A stretch of DNA of 43,097 nt from a virus, in IMG/VR virus record IMGVR_UViG_3300005366_000008, positions 1 through 43,097 of that record; one strand, 5' to 3'. Position numbers and translations under genes: made by a program. Shown here piece by piece: positions 12,519 through 22,980 of the stretch. Under the pieces are notes generated by a model. It saw only the letters and a list, made by a program, of their open reading frames with translations. It ran no database searches and was not told the origin of the DNA. Each line of letters opens with the position of its first letter. Position 1 is the stretch's first letter.

Positions 12519-13091
12519 ATGAAGAAGATCCTGGCTTTCATGTTCCTCCTGACCATGGCGATCGCCTGCAAGGCCGCTGCGGTTTGGGATCTGGAACTCC
12601 GCGGCACGTTCGAGGACCGTGCGCCGTTCGGCCTGTCCGGCACGTTCACCACGGACTCGTCGAACCTGACGAACCCGCAGTTGATCACGTCGTTCACCGG
12701 CACCTGGACCGACGGGCTGAACCACGCGCAACCGATCGAGTTGGTGCCCACCGGCGAAACGATCTGCGCGTCGTCCGACTGCGGCATGGTGTTCGACTAC
12801 AACAACCTGCTCTACGAGGTGCCAGGCGCCGGCTGGACCATCGACGACGCCTTCAACTACCAAGGCCTGATGCTGTTCGCGCCCACCAGCGGCTCGTACG
12901 TCAACATCTACAGCGGCCCGACCCTGCTGGCCTATGACTGCGACGGTCCGGGCCAGTGCCCGAACTCGCAGGTCACGGCCGTGACGGGCACGCTGACCTT
13001 GGAGACGGCCGCCGTGCCCGAGCCCCGGGGGTTCGCGCTTCTGCTCGCCGGCTTGGCACTCGTCGCGTGCCTCCGTCGCCGGCGCTTCTAG
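12519..13091 (+). CDS. Exported PEP-CTERM protein, 190 aa
   Basis: Residues 1-20 form a signal peptide (MKKILAFMFLLTMAIACKAA). The C-terminus has the full PEP-CTERM sorting signal: VPEP at 166-169, a hydrophobic helix, then LRRRRF at the very end. Exosortases cleave such signals in Gram-negative bacteria that make extracellular polysaccharide. The mature part is beta-rich (FGLSGTFTTDSSNL) with Cys pairs, as in secreted matrix proteins. No exosortase is encoded in the window, so the host enzyme would have to process it. The ATG at 12519 follows AGAGGTAACC. Confidence 0.85.
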   Translation: MKKILAFMFLLTMAIACKAAAVWDLELRGTFEDRAPFGLSGTFTTDSSNLTNPQLITSFTGTWTDGLNHAQPIELVPTGETICASSDCGMVFDYNNLLYEVPGAGWTIDDAFNYQGLMLFAPTSGSYVNIYSGPTLLAYDCDGPGQCPNSQVTAVTGTLTLETAAVPEPRGFALLLAGLALVACLRRRRF

Positions 13092-13117: not shown

Positions 13118-13948
13118 ATGAAGAAATTCCTGTACGCGCTGACCATCCTGTGCCTCATGGGCACGATCAAGTCGGCGCACGCTGCGCACGACCCGTGTGC
13201 CTGGGACAACCCAGGGCATGACCCCTACCGTTCGCAGGCGGATCTGACGAAGGCCCTCAACACGCTGTCGTTCGATCCGGCAGACAAGGCGCTGATCCGT
13301 GCCTCCATGGACGCGCACGCGTTCACCGACGTGCTGATCATCACCAAGGACTCGGTCTATTCGGAACGCACAGGCCAGGCCTACTTCGGGCTTCGTGACA
13401 TGCACAGCGGACACAGCACCTGCCACGGTGACGTCCGCCGTGACGCGTGGCCCGCAGGGCACATCGAGCGAGCGATTGCCTACTGCGCCAACGGCGACAC
13501 CTGCGTGGTCGTCCCGCAGGTCTGCGACAACGTGAGCCTGATCAGCCGCTTCATGGCTACCAAGGATCCCGACGTGCCGGTCGTCGACAACAGCGAGCTC
13601 CTGTTCGAGCCACCTGCTGCCGGGCCGCTCGTCGTCGCCGACCTGGTTCCGGAGATCGTCGCGCCTTCGATGCCGTCCGATCCCGTCCCTGACTCCGGTG
13701 CGCCGCCCTCGACGGCCTACTACTCGCCACCCTTCGATGGAGGTGGTGGCGGTGGTGGCCCGATCTTTGGCCGGCCTCCGAAGCCCCCGGCGTCCGCGCC
13801 GAGCAGCCCGTGTGGCAGCTCATCGTGCGGGCCTGTTGGCCCGCCTGGACCGCCGGTCACGGTGGTGCCAGAGCCGCCGACGATCTCCATGATCGCGGCC
13901 GCCCTGGCGCTCATCGTGCTGCGAGTGCGCCGCCGCTTCAAGCGGTAG
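13118..13948 (+). CDS. Second exported PEP-CTERM protein, 276 aa
   Basis: A signal peptide (MKKFLYALTILCLMGTIKSA, cleavage after AHA) is followed by a Cys-containing domain at residues about 25-150 (DMHSGHSTCHGDVRRDAWPA; CANGDTC; PQVCDN). This may belong to the MHFG group of PEP-CTERM proteins, but I cannot confirm it. A long Pro/Gly linker with seven Gly in a row precedes VPEP at 250-253, a hydrophobic helix and RVRRRFKR. GGGAGGAGG precedes the ATG at 13118. It is paired with the first PEP-CTERM gene 26 bases upstream. Confidence 0.85.
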   Translation: MKKFLYALTILCLMGTIKSAHAAHDPCAWDNPGHDPYRSQADLTKALNTLSFDPADKALIRASMDAHAFTDVLIITKDSVYSERTGQAYFGLRDMHSGHSTCHGDVRRDAWPAGHIERAIAYCANGDTCVVVPQVCDNVSLISRFMATKDPDVPVVDNSELLFEPPAAGPLVVADLVPEIVAPSMPSDPVPDSGAPPSTAYYSPPFDGGGGGGGPIFGRPPKPPASAPSSPCGSSSCGPVGPPGPPVTVVPEPPTISMIAAALALIVLRVRRRFKR

Positions 13949-16135: not shown

Positions 16136-16293
16136 CCCCGGTCCTTCCGTTCAACAGCTGGACGATCACCCCGATCAAGCTGGAAGGGCGCGAACGTCTG
16201 CAAGACCTCCGGCGCCTCGACACGCACCACCGCACCACCTGTCCTCAGCGTGAGGCGGAGAAGGCGGAGCTCCGGCGCAAGCTGGGCCTCTAA
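16132..16293 (+). CDS. Small hypothetical protein, 53 aa
   Basis: The ATG at 16132 overlaps the previous stop (AATGA). The 53-residue product begins MTPVLPFNSWTITPIKLEG and continues as a basic helix rich in Arg and Glu (REAEKAELRRKLGL). Start overlap and codon use support translation. Unrecognised. Confidence 0.5.
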   Translation: MTPVLPFNSWTITPIKLEGRERLQDLRRLDTHHRTTCPQREAEKAELRRKLGL

Positions 16294-16321
16294 GTTTCCA
16301 CAACCAACGACTGACCACCAC

Positions 16322-16669
16322 ATGAAGATCATCCGACCCCGCAACGGCAACGTCGTCCTCAAGGAGAAGGACGCGGAGACCACCGCCTCCGGCATCATCA
16401 CCGGCACCAACACCAAGGACGAGAAGCAGTTCATCGTCGAAGCGGTGGGCGACGGCTATCTGACGGCCGAAGGCACGCGCATCCCGATCAACCTGAAGCC
16501 GGGCGACATCGTCTACGTGGCCGCCGGCGTCAACTACAGCGGCTTCGAAATGGAGGACGGCTCGCTGCGCCTGGTCCTCAACGAAGCGCAGATCCTGGGC
16601 GTCCAGGAAGACGACGGCGTGCCGATCGTCAGGGGCCTCGAGAAGGTCCAGCTGATGATGCCGAACTGA
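16322..16669 (+). CDS. GroES/gp31-like co-chaperonin, 115 aa
   Basis: Order and motifs fit the Cpn10 fold: a first strand (MKIIRPRNGNVVLKEKDAE), a mobile-loop region with SGIITGTNTKDEKQ, AVGDGYLT, LKPGDIVYVAAGVN (PGD turn), then EAQILGVQE, as in the DILAV strand of GroES. Residues after 100 are an extension. Phage co-chaperonins such as T4 gp31 cap host GroEL to fold the capsid protein. No GroEL is present in the window. No clear ribosome binding site precedes the ATG at 16322. Confidence 0.75.
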   Translation: MKIIRPRNGNVVLKEKDAETTASGIITGTNTKDEKQFIVEAVGDGYLTAEGTRIPINLKPGDIVYVAAGVNYSGFEMEDGSLRLVLNEAQILGVQEDDGVPIVRGLEKVQLMMPN

Positions 16670-17353: not shown

Positions 17354-17835
17354 AGTTTTGCCGAGAAGCCTGTAAGTCAGGCGACTTTAGGACAGTCGAT
17401 AGTTGGTTATCGTCGCACAGCACCAGGTGACTGGTGACCGTCGGATGGTGTGACTTGGCGAGGGACAAGGCCCTCACGCTGTGAGCTTGAGCTAACGGGC
17501 GATTCAGCAGCCTCCAACAGACCATGTCCAGCCCCTGTGTTCCGGTATGGGTGCATGAGCCGAGGCGAGGAACCAAGGCAATAGGGCACTCGATGCACAG
17601 GGTCCACGCTGATCCACCTTGGTACTCAGGTTCCAAGACGTCGGCGGGAGTGAGCAGGATCTATCAATGTCGGCGTAGCGCCCGACCTCGGCACCCTTAG
17701 GCAAGGGAAGCCCAACGACTGACCGAAGAGCATGCCGAACGAGCCGAGTAGCCAACCTCCGCCTAGTAGGGTGACTTGTGTAGGACGACTGTTGGGCTTC
17801 CTGCGCCTTCCTTCTTTTTCAACCCGGAGAACCTG
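17354..17835 (+). ncRNA. 482-nt non-coding, densely structured region; candidate large ornate RNA
   Basis: No credible ORF is present. Helices visible by eye include GCCTG-TAAGT-CAGGC, CGATA/TATCG, CACCAG-GTGA-CTGGTG (17421-17436) inside GTCGCAC/GTGTGAC (17412-17454), GAGGG/CCCTC, GTGCAT/ATGCAC, CTTGG/CCAAG, CCCTT-AGGC-AAGGG, and a perfect 11-bp stem GGAAGCCCAAC/GTTGGGCTTCC (17706-17716 with 17791-17801). Position directly downstream of phage tRNAs and the size recall the GOLLD and ROOL classes of large phage RNAs; I cannot confirm membership. After the last stem a CTTCTTTTTC tract precedes the next gene. Confidence 0.5.
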
Positions 17836-18930
17836 ATGCTTCGACGACTCTCTGCGTTCCTGTTCGCTTCCGCGGCCGCTGTGGCTTTCGCAGGCCAGGT
17901 CTGCTCGCTGGACCCTGCAAGACCCGCTGGCCAGATCGGCAACGGCTTCTACGTGGCGAAGGCTTCGTCGGTGCACGGTGCGGCACCTGCCGCTTCCGGT
18001 GCGGTCGATCCGTACAAGCTGTTCGACCCGAGCGGCACCGAGTTCCGCATCCGTGGTGCCAATCGCAACCACTGGGACTCGTACGGAACCCCGAAGGGCT
18101 TTCCGCTCAGCGGCGCCAACACCGAGCGCATCGTCCTCAAGTTCGCGAACTCGGAAGCCTACAACTGGGGCATCGTCAAGACCCAGATGCTGGACAACGG
18201 GATCACGCCGATCCCAGGCTCGTGGCTCGGGACCTGCAAGGCCGACCCTGCAGTCCTCGTCGGGATCGTCGACACCTGGGTTGCCCAGGCGAAGACGTGG
18301 ACGCAGCTGAACGATGTCGGGCTCATCAACATCGCGAACGAATGGGGTCCTGCGAACAGCGCCGTGTGGCGCGATTCGTACCTGGCTGCCGTGGCTCGCA
18401 TGCGTGCCGCTGGCTACACCGGTACGCTCGTGATCGACAGCGGCGGCTGCGGCCAGGATGCGCAGGACATCGTCAAGTACGGCCAGGCCCTGCTCGATGC
18501 GGATCCGCAGCACAACCTGCTGTTCGACGTCCACGTGTACGGCTCCTTCCACTACCCGAAGGCGACTGCCACGTGGATGCAGGACTACACGACGGCACTG
18601 AACCAGCTGAAGGCCACCGGCCTGCCGATCGTCATCGGCGAGTTCGGACCTGGGCACAACATCGGCCCGAGCCCGACGATGCTGCCGCCCGAAGTGATCG
18701 TCGCCGACGCGGAGGCCAACGGCTGGGGCTGGATGCCGTGGTCCTGGGACGACAACAACCTGCAGGGCTGCCTCAGCGACGACAACGGCTTCTCGCTGAC
18801 CATCAAGTGCGGCACCTACACCGGCAGCCCCTTCGAGCTGACCAAGTTCGGGCAGACGATGGTCGCCCTGTGGGCGCAGTACAAGCCGCAGAAGGCACAG
18901 CTCAACTTCGTGCCCCTGACCACCCGATGA
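17836..18930 (+). CDS. Secreted GH5-type glycosidase (mannanase/cellulase-like), 364 aa
   Basis: A signal peptide (MLRRLSAFLFASAAAVAFAG) is followed by a TIM-barrel glycosidase with GH5 landmarks: FRIRGANRNHW (70-80), the acid/base in INIANEWG (E169), DVHVYGSFH (231-239), the nucleophile in IVIGEFGPG (E269), and GWMPWSWDDN near 320. The pattern is nearest to beta-mannanases such as subfamily 8. It would cut beta-1,4-linked polysaccharide outside the inner membrane. Unlike tail depolymerases it is a stand-alone secreted enzyme. GGAG lies 7-10 bases ahead of the ATG at 17836. Confidence 0.8.
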   Translation: MLRRLSAFLFASAAAVAFAGQVCSLDPARPAGQIGNGFYVAKASSVHGAAPAASGAVDPYKLFDPSGTEFRIRGANRNHWDSYGTPKGFPLSGANTERIVLKFANSEAYNWGIVKTQMLDNGITPIPGSWLGTCKADPAVLVGIVDTWVAQAKTWTQLNDVGLINIANEWGPANSAVWRDSYLAAVARMRAAGYTGTLVIDSGGCGQDAQDIVKYGQALLDADPQHNLLFDVHVYGSFHYPKATATWMQDYTTALNQLKATGLPIVIGEFGPGHNIGPSPTMLPPEVIVADAEANGWGWMPWSWDDNNLQGCLSDDNGFSLTIKCGTYTGSPFELTKFGQTMVALWAQYKPQKAQLNFVPLTTR

Positions 18931-18937
18931 ACCCTGA

Positions 18938-19027
18938 GCGGCCGTAGTTCAATGGCAGAACAGCGGACCAACCAGCAGGTAGCTCCTGCGACAGCAGACG
19001 CGGGTTCGATTCCCGTCAGCCGCTCCA
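18938..19027 (+). tRNA. tRNA-Gly-like body with an abnormal 38-nt anticodon region
   Basis: The acceptor GCGGCCG/CAGCCGC (one C-A mismatch), T8A9, D arm GTTC-AATGGCA-GAAC, T arm GCGGG-TTCGATT-CCCGT, and encoded TCCA match bacterial tRNA-Gly. Positions 26-48, normally 23 nt, are 38 nt here (18962-18999). No 5-bp stem with a 7-nt loop can be drawn; the best hairpins are GCAGG-TAGCT-CCTGC or CTGC-GACA-GCAG. A decoding anticodon is therefore not evident. It may be degenerate or a tRNA-like RNA with another job. Confidence 0.6.
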
Positions 19028-19603: not shown

Positions 19604-19685
19604 GTTGCCTTAGCTCAGTGGTAGAGCACTCGCTGGCCTTCGGGCATGTGAGAGGTCGACGGTTCGATCCCGTCAGGCGGCCCCA
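19604..19685 (+). tRNA. tRNA-like gene with the anticodon loop replaced by a UUCG-capped hairpin
   Basis: The body is canonical: acceptor GTTGCCT/AGGCGGC, T8A9, D arm GCTC-AGTGGTA-GAGC, variable AGGTC, T arm GACGG-TTCGATC-CCGTC, discriminator C and CCA encoded. The anticodon stem CTCGC/GTGAG is intact, but the loop is 14 nt (19634-19647) and folds as GCC-TTCG-GGC with small flanks. No 7-nt loop with U33 exists, so normal decoding is not expected. The elbow and CCA end should still be recognised by tRNA-processing enzymes. Confidence 0.75.
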
Positions 19686-19887
19686 GGTTGTGCTTTTGTG
19701 TCGAACAAGGTGTGCAATGACGAAGCCCCACCGCGAGTGCGAAGTCGGAGCATGGTAGCCACGATCGAAACATAGTTCCACGTCGCAGCGACTCCCACAA
19801 AGGTCGGGGATGCAGGGCCCTGGTAACGACGTGATGTGGGTGGAGAATCGGGAATCCCACCGCAGAAGCACTCCCCGCAAATTCAAA
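19686..19887 (+). other. 202-nt non-coding stretch between tRNA-like elements
   Basis: No gene is present. I see short hairpins (GTCGC-A-GCGAC palindrome near 19787; GGTGG/CCACC enclosing GGGA/TCCC near 19838-19862; an imperfect CTTTTGT/ACAAGG near 19692). It may be a spacer or part of a longer transcript started at the promoter-like motif at 19584. Confidence 0.35.
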
Positions 19888-20004
19888 CGGGCTCTACCAC
19901 AGGGGTAGAACAAGTAGGGCGGCCAGTAGGTAAATAGGCGCTGAAGCGCTGTTCCCGACAGCTGCGGCCGAACGTCGGTACGTTCAACTCGTACAGTCCG
20001 ACCA
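19888..20004 (+). ncRNA. 117-nt tRNA-like element with T arm and ACCA end
   Basis: The 3' end has a T-arm pattern, GTACG-TTCAACT-CGTAC, followed by AGTCCG and ACCA. The 5' bases CGGGCT can pair with AGTCCG (six pairs, one G-U). Between them are an 8-bp hairpin GCTCTACC/GGTAGAAC (one mismatch), GCGC-TGAA-GCGC, and GGCC/GGCC, with no anticodon arm. At 117 nt it is too long for a normal tRNA. It may be a degenerate or atypical tRNA-like RNA, or chance resemblance of the T arm. Confidence 0.35.
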
Positions 20005-20032
20005 TTTCCCAACCACAGCCTAGGAGCTGACA

Positions 20033-20221
20033 ATGCAGAAGTCCCTGATCCTCGCGACCCTGATCGCTGCCTGTGCCGTCGCCACCTGTGCCGCCGCTGC
20101 CTCCAGCACCGCGGAGCCGATCCAGTCGCCGCAGCCCGAGGCCACGCCGGACGGCTGCATGCCGGGCAACGGCGGCTCGGCCCCCATCTGCACGCCGGGC
20201 ACGGGCCCTGGCGGCAAGTAA
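20033..20221 (+). CDS. Small exported Pro/Gly-rich protein, 62 aa
   Basis: The signal peptide (KSLILATLIAACAVATCAAA) is followed by a 40-residue mature part rich in Pro, Gly and Ser with two Cys (GCMPGNGGSAPICTPGTGPG). The signal contains VATC, but Thr before Cys argues against a lipobox. TAGGAG precedes the ATG at 20033. Fate after export is unknown; it resembles the low-complexity linkers of the nearby PEP-CTERM protein. Confidence 0.65.
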   Translation: MQKSLILATLIAACAVATCAAAASSTAEPIQSPQPEATPDGCMPGNGGSAPICTPGTGPGGK

Positions 20222-20344
20222 GGCCAGCTGAACGATCAACGCAGCGAGGGCGAAAGAAGAGTCACCCGCAGTTGCAATGAAGGCCGCCTCCCCAGGCCCG
20301 ACACCCGGCGCAAGCCGGAAGTCATACCATAGGGAACATGGTTG

Positions 20345-20700
20345 TGTGTCGGTCTTCGGATCGACGAGAGGTTGAAGTTGACGGGTTCGACACGCGGGTT
20401 CAAGTCCCGCCACCTCCACCTTAGACTCCACAAGTAGTGGCACGAGCCACCGTGGGAGCCGAACGCCTTTCTGTGGCCAGACAACGCCGGAAGCAAGACA
20501 GTCGTGGTACGGCTGACGGTGCGGGTGGTGTCTAAGGTGGGGGTGACATGGGATCGACCGAGCCGCTGATATAGAGACCAACAACTCGCGTACATCGCCT
20601 TGCCTAGCTCAGCGTTAGAGAGCCGACAGGGTACAAAACTAACTGCCAACGACGAGCAATTCGCTCAGGCCCTCGCGGCCTAAGCGCAGAACATCTCCGG
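20345..20700 (+). ncRNA. ssrA: Permuted (two-piece) tmRNA, tag ANDEQFAQALAA
   Basis: The 3' acceptor piece comes first: T arm GCGGG-TTCAAGT-CCCGC (20394-20410), then CACCTCC, A and CC (20411-20420). The 5' coding piece starts at 20539 with GGGGGTG, which pairs with CACCTCC and places a G3-U70 wobble, the alanine identity signal. GACATGGGATCGAC follows, as in tmRNA D-loops, and CGAGCC (20559) pairs with GGTTCG (20384) as helix 2. The spacer ends CCTTAGAC/GTCTAAGG pair and extend the acceptor. The tag frame is 20645-20683, GCC to TAA. The outer ends are approximate. It would rescue stalled ribosomes and mark peptides for proteolysis. Confidence 0.9.
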
Positions 20701-20733
20701 GTTCTACCTAGTTCGCTAGGTGTGTACGGAGAC

Positions 20734-20840
20734 GGGCCGGCGCACTGAGTAACCCTTGGTGCGTGTCTGAGTAAGCCGGGATCGCAAGGTCCAGGTTAGA
20801 GCACTGCGAGGTTTACCTCTACGTGCTCGAACGCCGGCCC
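20734..20840 (+). ncRNA. Multi-hairpin RNA B, closed by a 9-bp stem
   Basis: GGGCCGGCG (20734-20742) pairs perfectly with CGCCGGCCC (20832-20840). Inside are GCAC/GTGC, GGATC-GCAA-GGTCC, and a long hairpin GAGCAC/GTGCTC enclosing GAGG-TTTA-CCTC, giving a four-way, cloverleaf-like junction without a T loop. RNA A at 19462 shares the plan and the GCAA-capped hairpin. Upstream, CTCCG/CGGAG enclosing ACCTAG-TTCG-CTAGGT (20695-20731) ends the tmRNA region. Confidence 0.55.
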
Positions 20841-20870
20841 ACCCCTAACAACCTTGAAGAAGGAGGTGCC

Positions 20871-21124: not shown

Positions 21125-21763
21125 ATGCAGATGAGTCGCCGAGGCTTCCTCGGGTCTATGATGGCCGCTGCCGTTGCGCCCGCAGTGGTCAAGGCCGAGA
21201 GCCTCATGAAGATCGTGCAGCCCAAGATCGTGGCGCCTCGTGGCGTCACTCGCTCGATCTTCGTCGTCGACGAGCTTCCGTTCTACAGCATCGACGAGTA
21301 CAAATGGTGCGAGCCGGTGTCGAACCCGAACATGATCCACGGGTTGCGTCCTGGCGACATGGTGACCATCCACTCGCGTGAACACGACCCAACGTTCTCG
21401 GTGGACCACGCGTTCGGGAGCAAGCGCGAGTCGATCTACCGCATTGTCCGCGACGGCCGCGACATGCCTCTCTCGGAGGTCGATACCTACGCGTACCCGC
21501 GGGACCTCTACCCCGAGGAGTCCTTCGACTTCAGCGACATCCAGATCAAGCGTGTCGACGTCACGCAGGAGCTCGGCGAGAAGATTGCCGACCAGCTGTA
21601 CCTTACCGCGAACCGCGAAGGGTTCATGCGCAGGTACATGCGGCTCGCCGAGGCGGAGAAGCGACAGGCCGAGAAAGTGCGGTCGGTCGCGGCGAGCCGT
21701 GTGGAGGCCCCGCGAGTCCTCGGCAAGCCGATCACCGTTCGCTGGGAAGCCCTCGGCTTCTAA
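21125..21763 (+). CDS. Tat-leader protein 1, 212 aa
   Basis: The N-terminus MQMSRRGFLGSMMAAAVAPA has a twin-arginine motif (SRRGFLG), a hydrophobic stretch and a VKA cleavage-like site, so export by the Tat pathway is predicted. ESLMKIVQPKIVAP follows and is shared with the next gene. The mature part is mixed alpha/beta with a charged C-terminal helix (RLAEAEKRQAEKVRSVAASR). First of three tandem paralogues. AGGAGA precedes the ATG at 21125; ATG 21131 is an alternative. Confidence 0.75.
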   Translation: MQMSRRGFLGSMMAAAVAPAVVKAESLMKIVQPKIVAPRGVTRSIFVVDELPFYSIDEYKWCEPVSNPNMIHGLRPGDMVTIHSREHDPTFSVDHAFGSKRESIYRIVRDGRDMPLSEVDTYAYPRDLYPEESFDFSDIQIKRVDVTQELGEKIADQLYLTANREGFMRRYMRLAEAEKRQAEKVRSVAASRVEAPRVLGKPITVRWEALGF

Positions 21764-21776
21764 GCAACTCATCACT

Positions 21777-21809
21777 AGCCCTATCGGTTCACGCTGATGG
21801 GGCTTTTTT
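21777..21809 (+). terminator. Rho-independent terminator
   Basis: AGCCCTATC pairs with GATGGGGCT (9 bp including one G-U) around a 10-base loop and is followed by six T. It separates Tat-leader gene 1 from gene 2, although gene 2 follows closely, so read-through or a further promoter is needed. Confidence 0.9.
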
Positions 21810-21841
21810 GTACCCCTACCAAACCTGACAAGGAGATCGTA

Positions 21842-22426
21842 ATGAACCTCAGTCGCCGTGGTTTCCTCGGAGCCATCCTCGCAGCCGGTGCTGCGCCTGC
21901 CATCGTGAAGGCCGAGAGCCTCATGAAGATCGTGGTGCCGAAGCACGTCGCCGATGGTCAGTTCCTCGTCATGACCGGTTACCGGTTCGGTAACGGTGAT
22001 CGTGAGCAGATGGAAGGCCGGATCCAACGGGGCCACAAGTACGAGCACCTCTGGGTTGAAGATGATGGCCGGCCCTCCGGCTGGATCAGCACCGACACCG
22101 AGATCGAGTTCACGTGGCGCGACGGGCAGATCGTCGAGACCAGCATGGTCAACCCGGACGACGTGCGGCAGATCAAGAACCAGATGTACGATGCCTACAG
22201 CTCTGGCGAGACGTTCAACGACGTGGCGGCACGCGCGCGGTCCGGTGGCAAGAGCTGGGTTGCCTACGAGATCGACAAGTCCTCCGTGCTCGTCGGCCGG
22301 AAAGAAACGCAGCCGCTGTTCATCGCCGCTCGACGTGGCCCGCAGCAGGCCAAGCGCGTGCCTGTCCGCCCTAAGAGCACCATGGAGCAGTTCATGGATG
22401 CGATCAACATGAAGATCCGGAGCTGA
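21842..22426 (+). CDS. Tat-leader protein 2, 194 aa
   Basis: AAGGAG lies about nine bases before the ATG at 21842; a longer upstream frame would translate the terminator and is rejected. The leader MNLSRRGFLGAILAAGAAPA, then IVKAESLMKIVVPK, is nearly the same as in protein 1. The mature part differs and contains WISTDTEIEFTWRDGQIVET. It is probably exported, folded, to the periplasm. Function unknown. Confidence 0.75.
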   Translation: MNLSRRGFLGAILAAGAAPAIVKAESLMKIVVPKHVADGQFLVMTGYRFGNGDREQMEGRIQRGHKYEHLWVEDDGRPSGWISTDTEIEFTWRDGQIVETSMVNPDDVRQIKNQMYDAYSSGETFNDVAARARSGGKSWVAYEIDKSSVLVGRKETQPLFIAARRGPQQAKRVPVRPKSTMEQFMDAINMKIRS

Positions 22427-22428
22427 TC

Positions 22429-22980
22429 ATGGAAATCCGTCGTCGCTCTTTCCTCGCAGGCATCCTCGGTGCCTGCGTTGCCCCTTCGATCGTCCGCGCA
22501 TCGAGCCTGATGCCGTCGAAGATCGTCCTTCCAGGTACCTGCGCAGGCACGTTCAACAAGGTCACGGTCGATGCGTGTGGACGTATCTCGTCCAATCTGG
22601 CAGGCAAGATTCTGGAGATTCAGGAGGACGGGCAGCCAGCATGGGTCGACTGGAAGGTCAGTCAGACAGTCGAGTCGCAGATCACGACTGACAGGTGGTA
22701 CACGCCGCCCGAGCGCGTGATCCAGGCTCGTCCGTTCATCCCTGCCGACGAGCTGAACAAGCCGGTGGAGGACTTCTGGTCCTTCAAGGAGATCGGTGAT
22801 CCCGAGACCGCGCGCAAGTTCGAGGTCCTCGGGATCAACAAGTCGTTCATCAGCGGTGATCCGCAGTGGTCCTCCAGGGAACAGATGATGCACGAGTTCA
22901 ACCGCACGGCTCGTGAGATCCAGCGGGAGATCGACGCAGGTCGCATGCCTGCGTTCAAGCGTTGGTTGCAAGGAGCCTGA
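22429..22980 (+). CDS. Tat-leader protein 3, 183 aa
   Basis: It starts two bases after the previous stop. The leader MEIRRRSFLAGILGACVAPS, followed by IVRASSLMPSKIVLPG, has the same plan as the two upstream paralogues. The mature part contains CAGTFNKVTVDACG and a helical C-terminus. Three diverged mature domains behind one conserved leader suggest duplication with selection on the exported part. Confidence 0.75.
   Translation: MEIRRRSFLAGILGACVAPSIVRASSLMPSKIVLPGTCAGTFNKVTVDACGRISSNLAGKILEIQEDGQPAWVDWKVSQTVESQITTDRWYTPPERVIQARPFIPADELNKPVEDFWSFKEIGDPETARKFEVLGINKSFISGDPQWSSREQMMHEFNRTAREIQREIDAGRMPAFKRWLQGA

What the first reader, a model, noticed from the sequence alone, without database searches (positions are those of the whole stretch)
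20345..20700. Phage-encoded permuted two-piece tmRNA with tag ANDEQFAQALAA
Seen: the 3' acceptor half precedes the 5' half. The seven acceptor pairs are complete with G3-U70. The T arm is canonical, helix 2 can form, spacer ends pair to extend the acceptor, and a 12-codon tag starting GCC and ending ALAA plus TAA is present. Known: permuted tmRNAs occur in alphaproteobacteria, cyanobacteria and some betaproteobacteria; phage tmRNAs are known but uncommon. A phage copy could replace host rescue during takeover or mark host proteins with its own tag.
Basis: partly seen in the sequence, partly recalled or inferred. Interest (0 to 1): 0.9.

Follow-up and report, generated by a model that had tools for sequence, protein, structure and literature searches.

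The report
Phage-encoded two-piece tmRNA
A large bacterial virus carries its own split version of tmRNA, the RNA that frees stuck ribosomes and tags the unfinished protein for destruction; this is a real, conserved gene of a known kind, with an unusually elaborate extra RNA domain at the end of its coding half.

Summary
ARAGORN and Rfam RF04321, tmRNA_permuted (68.3 bits, cut-off 47, E 3e-11), find a circularly permuted tmRNA with tag ANDEQFAQALAA in this 43-kb phage fragment. Its nearest annotated relatives are the Burkholderia phages BcepSauron and BcepSaruman and Achromobacter phage Motura.

Three uncultured relatives also carry it. One has the same tag, in a syntenic place. Acceptor stem, T stem and helix 2 pair in all four, with eight pairs changed on both sides and G3-U70 invariant. 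The four lie in one supported terminase clade; 28 relatives outside that clade lack it.

A branched domain (20734-20840) follows the second pseudoknot, is supported by compensatory changes, and seems to enlarge the terminal hairpin of betaproteobacterial permuted tmRNAs. The window copy encodes CCU, not CCA.

Permuted phage tmRNAs are already published (PMC9004378), and 38 more viral contigs passed the Rfam cut-off here. The find is therefore a new variant of a known kind, of moderate interest. Function (ribosome rescue with host SmpB) is inferred, not shown.

The parts
20329..20850 (+). whole permuted tmRNA gene: acceptor piece, spacer, coding piece (both outer ends approximate)
   Evidence: ARAGORN 20329-20774, RF04321 20370-20683, conservation with G001 to about 20854
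20348..20365 (+). hairpin near the 5' end of the acceptor piece (GTCGGTC-TTCG-GATCGAC)
   Evidence: kept in G001 with one one-sided change; two pairs fall in an alignment gap
20384..20389 (+). helix 2, 3' strand (GGTTCG), pairs with 20559-20564
   Evidence: three double-sided changes, all four phages pair
20394..20410 (+). T arm, 5-bp stem and 7-nt loop
   Evidence: sequence; pairs kept in four phages
20411..20421 (+). acceptor 3' strand CACCTCC, discriminator A (20418), then CCT where CCA is usual
   Evidence: sequence; the three relatives encode ACCA
20422..20538 (+). spacer removed in maturation; its ends extend the acceptor helix
   Evidence: paired ends in all four phages, length from A73 to -1 is 121, 36, 113 and 76 nt
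20539..20545 (+). acceptor 5' strand GGGGGTG; predicted RNase P cut before 20539
   Evidence: 7 of 7 pairs with G3-U70, three pairs with double-sided changes over four phages
20559..20564 (+). helix 2, 5' strand (CGAGCC)
20566..20644 (+). region of PK1 and resume signal (TAACT before GCC); PK1 pairing not resolved
   Evidence: RF00023 partial match 20601-20732, 14.6 bits, below cut-off; candidate helices lack covariation
20645..20683 (+). tag frame ANDEQFAQALAA + TAA
   Evidence: ARAGORN; identical in G001, within a 75-nt identical stretch 20619-20693
20688..20732 (+). PK2: stem 1 20688-20692/20701-20705, stem 2 20694-20699/20727-20732, inserted hairpin 20706-20721
   Evidence: stem 2 has two double-sided changes; stem 1 and hairpin invariant
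20734..20840 (+). extra 3' domain: P1 20734-20740/20834-20840 closing P2 20742-20762, P3 20774-20797, P4 20799-20828
   Evidence: MFE z -4.05; six double-sided changes in P2 and P4; closing helix at the same place in G042 and G060

Best explanation
This is a working, phage-encoded two-piece tmRNA (ssrA). One precursor is transcribed in the order acceptor piece, spacer, coding piece. Spacer ends and acceptor strands form a long extended acceptor helix. Host RNase P cuts before G1 (20539); the 3' side is trimmed and completed to CCA by host tRNA nucleotidyltransferase. The pieces stay joined by the acceptor stem and helix 2. Host AlaRS charges the RNA through G3-U70 and host SmpB carries it to stalled ribosomes. 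Translation resumes at GCC and adds (A)ANDEQFAQALAA, a degradation tag ending in ALAA. The likely benefit is to keep ribosomes free while infection leaves many truncated mRNAs. Shown: gene order, structure by covariation, conserved tag and locus. Inferred: transcription, processing, charging, SmpB use, benefit.
For: ARAGORN and RF04321. All 18 pairs of acceptor, T stem and helix 2 kept in four phages with eight double-sided pairs; G3-U70 invariant. 14 double-sided changes in the window/G001 pair. Identical tag and resume region in G001. Syntenic locus. Four carriers in one supported clade of six. Spacer-end pairing kept in all four despite spacer lengths of 36-121 nt; the U at position 76 of the window is matched by a compensating A at -4.
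Against: No expression or processing data. The window copy encodes CCU and has the lowest RF04321 score of the four (68.3 against 75.5-87.5). No SmpB in the carriers' contigs, which are fragments, so the partner must come from the host. PK1 is not resolved. The host is unknown.
Confidence: 0.85

Rival explanations
1. The window copy is decaying: its tRNA-like end has lost the CCA and it scores lowest of the four, so it is a remnant and not a working tmRNA.
For: ACCT at 20418-20421 while the four tRNA-like genes of the window encode CCA; lowest RF04321 score.
Against: No pair of the tRNA-like domain is broken; tag frame intact and identical to G001; the change at 76 is compensated at -4 in the precursor helix; several other viral permuted tmRNAs also lack encoded CCA (ATTA, ATCC, ACTT).
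Confidence: 0.06
2. It acts as a competitor: the phage RNA binds host SmpB or ribosomes and changes or blunts host trans-translation instead of supporting it.
For: A tmRNA consisting of little more than the tRNA-like domain exists in mycobacteriophage DS6A, and a similar molecule inhibits tmRNA, perhaps by titrating SmpB (PMC4131195).
Against: Tag frame and resume region are the best conserved part, which a competitor would not need.
Confidence: 0.05
3. A separate, fourth origin of permutation: the gene derives from a one-piece tmRNA, and the extra domain is what remains of PK3 and PK4.
For: Coding piece of G060 matches the one-piece model RF00023 best of its clan, 45.6 bits, just below the cut-off of 47; the coding-piece middle of the window also prefers RF00023, weakly (14.6 bits); all four stay below the beta_tmRNA cut-off.
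Against: Over the whole gene RF01850 is the best clan match in all four (39.3-68.9 bits) and the coding piece of G042 prefers RF01850. The beta_tmRNA model also has a terminal hairpin directly after PK2, a simpler source of the domain. The nearest cultured relatives infect Burkholderiales.
Confidence: 0.1
4. The 3' domain 20734-20840 is a separate small RNA downstream of an ordinary two-piece tmRNA.
For: No transcript data; other viral permuted tmRNAs end soon after PK2.
Against: Only one nucleotide separates PK2 stem 2 from P1 in window and G001, and a closing helix follows PK2 at once in G042 and G060; RF01850 has its terminal hairpin at the same place.
Confidence: 0.2
5. The region is protein-coding DNA on the minus strand and the tmRNA match is accidental.
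For: Long minus-strand ORFs overlap it (20236-20649, 19883-20584), as GC-rich DNA often gives.
Against: Spacer length differs by 85 nt between window and G001 and one-base indels occur elsewhere; changes follow RNA pairing.
Confidence: 0.01

Closest known systems
Betaproteobacterial permuted tmRNA (Rfam RF01850) and viral contigs that carry it (L009, L031, L040, L057, L095, L109)
   Same: Permuted order, G3-U70 acceptor, helix 2, paired spacer ends, tag of the ANDE-xFA-LAA kind (several viral ones are ANDEQFALAA), PK2 followed by a terminal helix.
   Different: Below the RF01850 cut-off (39.3 against 84 bits); two extra tag residues (QA); PK2 has an inserted hairpin; the short terminal hairpin is replaced by a branched domain of 107 nt; CCU instead of CCA.
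Two-piece tmRNA of Methylophilales phage Melnitz and other marine phages (PMC9004378)
   Same: Complete permuted tmRNA in a lytic-type tailed phage; same proposed roles.
   Different: Melnitz ssrA is of the alphaproteobacterial (SAR11) kind and under a glutamine riboswitch. Here Rfam shows no riboswitch in the window, and the gene belongs to a large-phage clade related to BcepSauron.
One-piece phage tmRNAs (mycobacteriophage Bxz1 group, Bacillus phage G; PMC4131195)
   Same: Phage-borne tmRNA in phages with large genomes.
   Different: Not permuted (as I recall for these; the paper lists them without giving the form).

Membership tests
Permuted (two-piece) tmRNA, Rfam RF04321 | Score over the curated cut-off of 47 bits | tested here: met
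   68.3 bits, full model length; relatives 75.5-87.5
Permuted (two-piece) tmRNA, Rfam RF04321 | Acceptor 3' half encoded upstream of the 5' half, joined by the acceptor stem | tested here: met
   20411-20417 upstream of 20539-20545, 7 of 7 pairs, covarying
Permuted (two-piece) tmRNA, Rfam RF04321 | Alanine identity pair G3-U70 | tested here: met
   20541/20415; invariant in four phages
Permuted (two-piece) tmRNA, Rfam RF04321 | Tag frame with Ala resume codon and small hydrophobic end, then stop | tested here: met
   GCC...ALAA TAA 20645-20683, identical in G001
Permuted (two-piece) tmRNA, Rfam RF04321 | Helix 2 joining the pieces; PK1 and PK2 around the tag | tested here: inconclusive
   Helix 2 and PK2 stem 2 supported by covariation; PK1 not resolved
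Permuted (two-piece) tmRNA, Rfam RF04321 | Processing into two RNA molecules and tagging activity with SmpB | not testable with these tools
   needs RNA and protein experiments; no SmpB gene in the contigs
Betaproteobacterial permuted tmRNA, Rfam RF01850 | Score over the curated cut-off of 84 bits | tested here: not met
   39.3 bits; relatives 49.9-68.9
One-piece tmRNA, Rfam RF00023 | Score over the curated cut-off of 47 bits in standard order | tested here: not met
   28.3 bits at best in the window

The most novel reading that the evidence does not exclude
The tmRNA of this phage lineage is a separate, fourth origin of circular permutation, made from a one-piece tmRNA, with the branched domain 20734-20840 as what is left of PK3 and PK4. 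The coding piece of relative G060 matches the one-piece model best of its clan (RF00023, 45.6 bits, just below the cut-off). Against it, the coding piece of G042 matches beta_tmRNA best, as do the whole genes of all four.
Probability: 0.1. Interest if true: 0.65.

Novelty: new variant of a known kind. Interest (0 to 1): 0.35.

Why it matters
A clade of large phages keeps a complete two-piece tmRNA, and compensatory changes show selection on the RNA. That makes it a clean case for asking why phages bring their own ribosome rescue. The extra domain shows that the coding piece of a two-piece tmRNA can gain structure after PK2, although such RNAs are usually described as reduced. The clade-specific model RF01850 misses it at its cut-off, so phage tmRNAs are probably under-annotated.

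Tried and rejected
DNA similarity to known phages: none for the whole gene; a 47-base hit in a Stenotrophomonas phage (E 0.6) is chance. None in plasmids.

The IMG/VR pattern AGGGTACNAAACTAACTGC hit a second contig (L139), but that is protein-coding and a chance match.

Tag pattern in genome contigs: 3 hits (Bacteroidetes, Lysinibacillus), none with a tmRNA by ARAGORN. So no host gene with this tag was found, and the hosts' own permuted tmRNAs could not be fetched for comparison.

My own regex sorting of the 120 pattern loci missed many loci that ARAGORN calls; RF04321 was used instead.

RF00023 hits in BcepSauron and in G050, G053 and G071 are below the cut-off and, from their lengths of about 77-118 nt, are probably tRNAs (not checked).

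PK1 pairing: several candidates, none with double-sided covariation. Relaxed Rfam search of the 3' domain: no match.

One other viral locus (L125) also has a strong fold downstream of its tag (z -13.6), near a contig end. It was not followed up and is not counted as the same domain.

Full report
CHECK OF THE OBSERVATION. ARAGORN calls a permuted tmRNA at 20329-20774 with tag ANDEQFAQALAA. Rfam RF04321, the merged model for permuted tmRNAs (PMC11915505), matches 20370-20683 with 68.3 bits against a cut-off of 47, E 3.3e-11, over its full length. The acceptor stem is complete (20539-20545 with 20411-20417) and holds G3-U70. T arm, helix 2, the paired spacer ends and the 12-codon frame are present.

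WHERE IT LIES. The window is a linear IMG/VR virus record. It encodes terminase, portal, SSB, UvsX-like recombinase and a Holliday junction resolvase by PHROGs. Among annotated phages the terminase is nearest to BcepSauron/BcepSaruman (48%) and Achromobacter phage Motura (44%), whose genomes are 221-264 kb. The whole records of BcepSauron and Motura, and of the more distant PaBG and NCTB, have no permuted tmRNA over the cut-off, no one-piece tmRNA over the cut-off and no SmpB. A betaproteobacterial host is therefore likely, but this is inference.

RELATIVES. A terminase search found G001 (91 kb, 71% identical). It has a permuted tmRNA at 87.5 bits with the identical tag, about 13.5 kb upstream of the terminase as in the window, within a collinear stretch. 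A profile search gave 53 terminase relatives. Of 32 of these searched further, two more, G042 and G060, carry permuted tmRNAs (83.4 and 75.5 bits), with ARAGORN tags ANDAQFLQAANA and AANDSSFDQRLAA. In a terminase tree the four carriers belong to one starred clade of six (100/99), whose other two members are fragments. The 28 relatives searched outside that clade, including several contigs of 190-231 kb, have none. The tree does not by itself prove a single gain, since the label needs 2-3 changes if the two fragments are scored as lacking it.

SELECTION ON THE RNA. Between window and G001, 76 proposed pairs show 99.3% pairing and 14 double-sided changes. Shuffling gives 7.1 on average with 0 of 500 as high, and slid partners give 0-2. 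Over four phages, all 18 pairs of acceptor stem, T stem and helix 2 are kept in every sequence, and 8 have changes on both sides. G3-U70 never varies. The stretch 20619-20693, which holds the resume site and the tag, is identical in window and G001, although the tRNA-like parts and the spacer differ much. The distance from A73 to -1 varies from 36 to 121 nt, but the flanks pair in all four. In the window, position 76 is U instead of A and its partner at -4 is A instead of U, so the precursor helix is kept while the encoded CCA is lost. The four tRNA-like genes in the window do encode CCA. Other viral permuted tmRNAs without encoded CCA were seen.

THE EXTRA DOMAIN. Published accounts say that the coding piece of two-piece tmRNA typically has only PK1 and PK2 (PMC3985003) and that two-piece tmRNAs have fewer pseudoknots (PMC3968760). 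Here PK2 (20688-20732) contains an inserted hairpin and is followed after one nucleotide by a domain closed by GGGCCGG/CCGGCCC with three hairpins (20734-20840). The stretch folds better than 199 of 200 shuffles (z -4.05). P2 and P4 hold six double-sided changes and P3 two one-sided ones. G042 and G060 have a closing helix at the same place with different sequence and smaller contents. Of 25 other viral permuted tmRNAs scanned the same way, only L125 had a comparably strong fold, not followed up. No Rfam family matches the domain. The beta_tmRNA model also ends in a short GC-rich hairpin directly after PK2, so the domain is most simply an enlarged form of that hairpin. That it belongs to the mature RNA is inferred.

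MECHANISM. Established knowledge of tmRNA gives the steps: extended acceptor helix, RNase P cut before G1, 3' trimming and CCA repair, alanylation through G3-U70, SmpB-dependent entry into stalled ribosomes, resumption at GCC, release with a C-terminal tag ending in ALAA. No SmpB was found in the carriers' contigs, so host SmpB is assumed. Ribosome rescue during infection is the most likely use. Competition with host tmRNA (compare DS6A, PMC4131195) is less likely because the tag frame is conserved.

COMPARISON AND NOVELTY. Phage two-piece tmRNAs are known: Melnitz, and 53 of 133 unique phage tmRNA structures in one survey (PMC9004378); 79 bacteriophage sequences of any form are in the tmRNA database (PMC11915505). 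The window and its relatives stay below the beta_tmRNA cut-off (39.3-68.9 against 84). It is therefore a member of the permuted tmRNA family, not of RF01850 as curated, and a structural variant through its 3' domain. A separate origin of permutation is possible but weakly supported: the G060 coding piece prefers RF00023, the G042 coding piece prefers RF01850.

Noticed in passing
window 18938-19027 and 19604-19688: Two tRNA-like genes with abnormal anticodon arms. The first (RF00005, 44 bits, not called by ARAGORN) has a Gly-like body and about 38 nt in place of a normal anticodon arm. The second has a 14-nt anticodon loop that could form its own GCC-TTCG-GGC hairpin; ARAGORN reads a four-base anticodon.
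   Followed up: partly
L132 5654-5743 (relative G001): ARAGORN calls a 90-nt tRNA-Thr(tgt), but the gene has a long variable arm and looks Leu/Ser-like in body.
   Followed up: no
window 12519-13091 and 13127-13948: Two phage ORFs end in PEP-CTERM-like signals; the second matches the MHFG family PEP-CTERM protein over the NCBIfam cut-off (104.3 against 100) and Pfam PEP-CTERM. Substrates of a host exosortase in a phage would be unusual and hint at the host.
   Followed up: partly
window 21125-22980: Three tandem ORFs directly downstream of the tmRNA begin with similar twin-arginine-like signals (SRRGFLG, SRRGFLG, RRRSFLA); no Pfam or curated NCBIfam match.
   Followed up: partly
window 17776-18930: A GH5 cellulase-like ORF (Pfam, E 1e-15) among the tRNA genes; in relative G001 its homologue (54%) lies at 59.6-60.8 kb on the other strand, so it has moved.
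   Followed up: partly
window 16274-16669: A GroES-like (Cpn10) ORF; Motura also has one.
   Followed up: no
window 20033-20221: A 62-aa ORF just upstream of the tmRNA; its homologue in G001 is 93% identical over 27 residues, far above most neighbouring genes, and lies at the same place.
   Followed up: no
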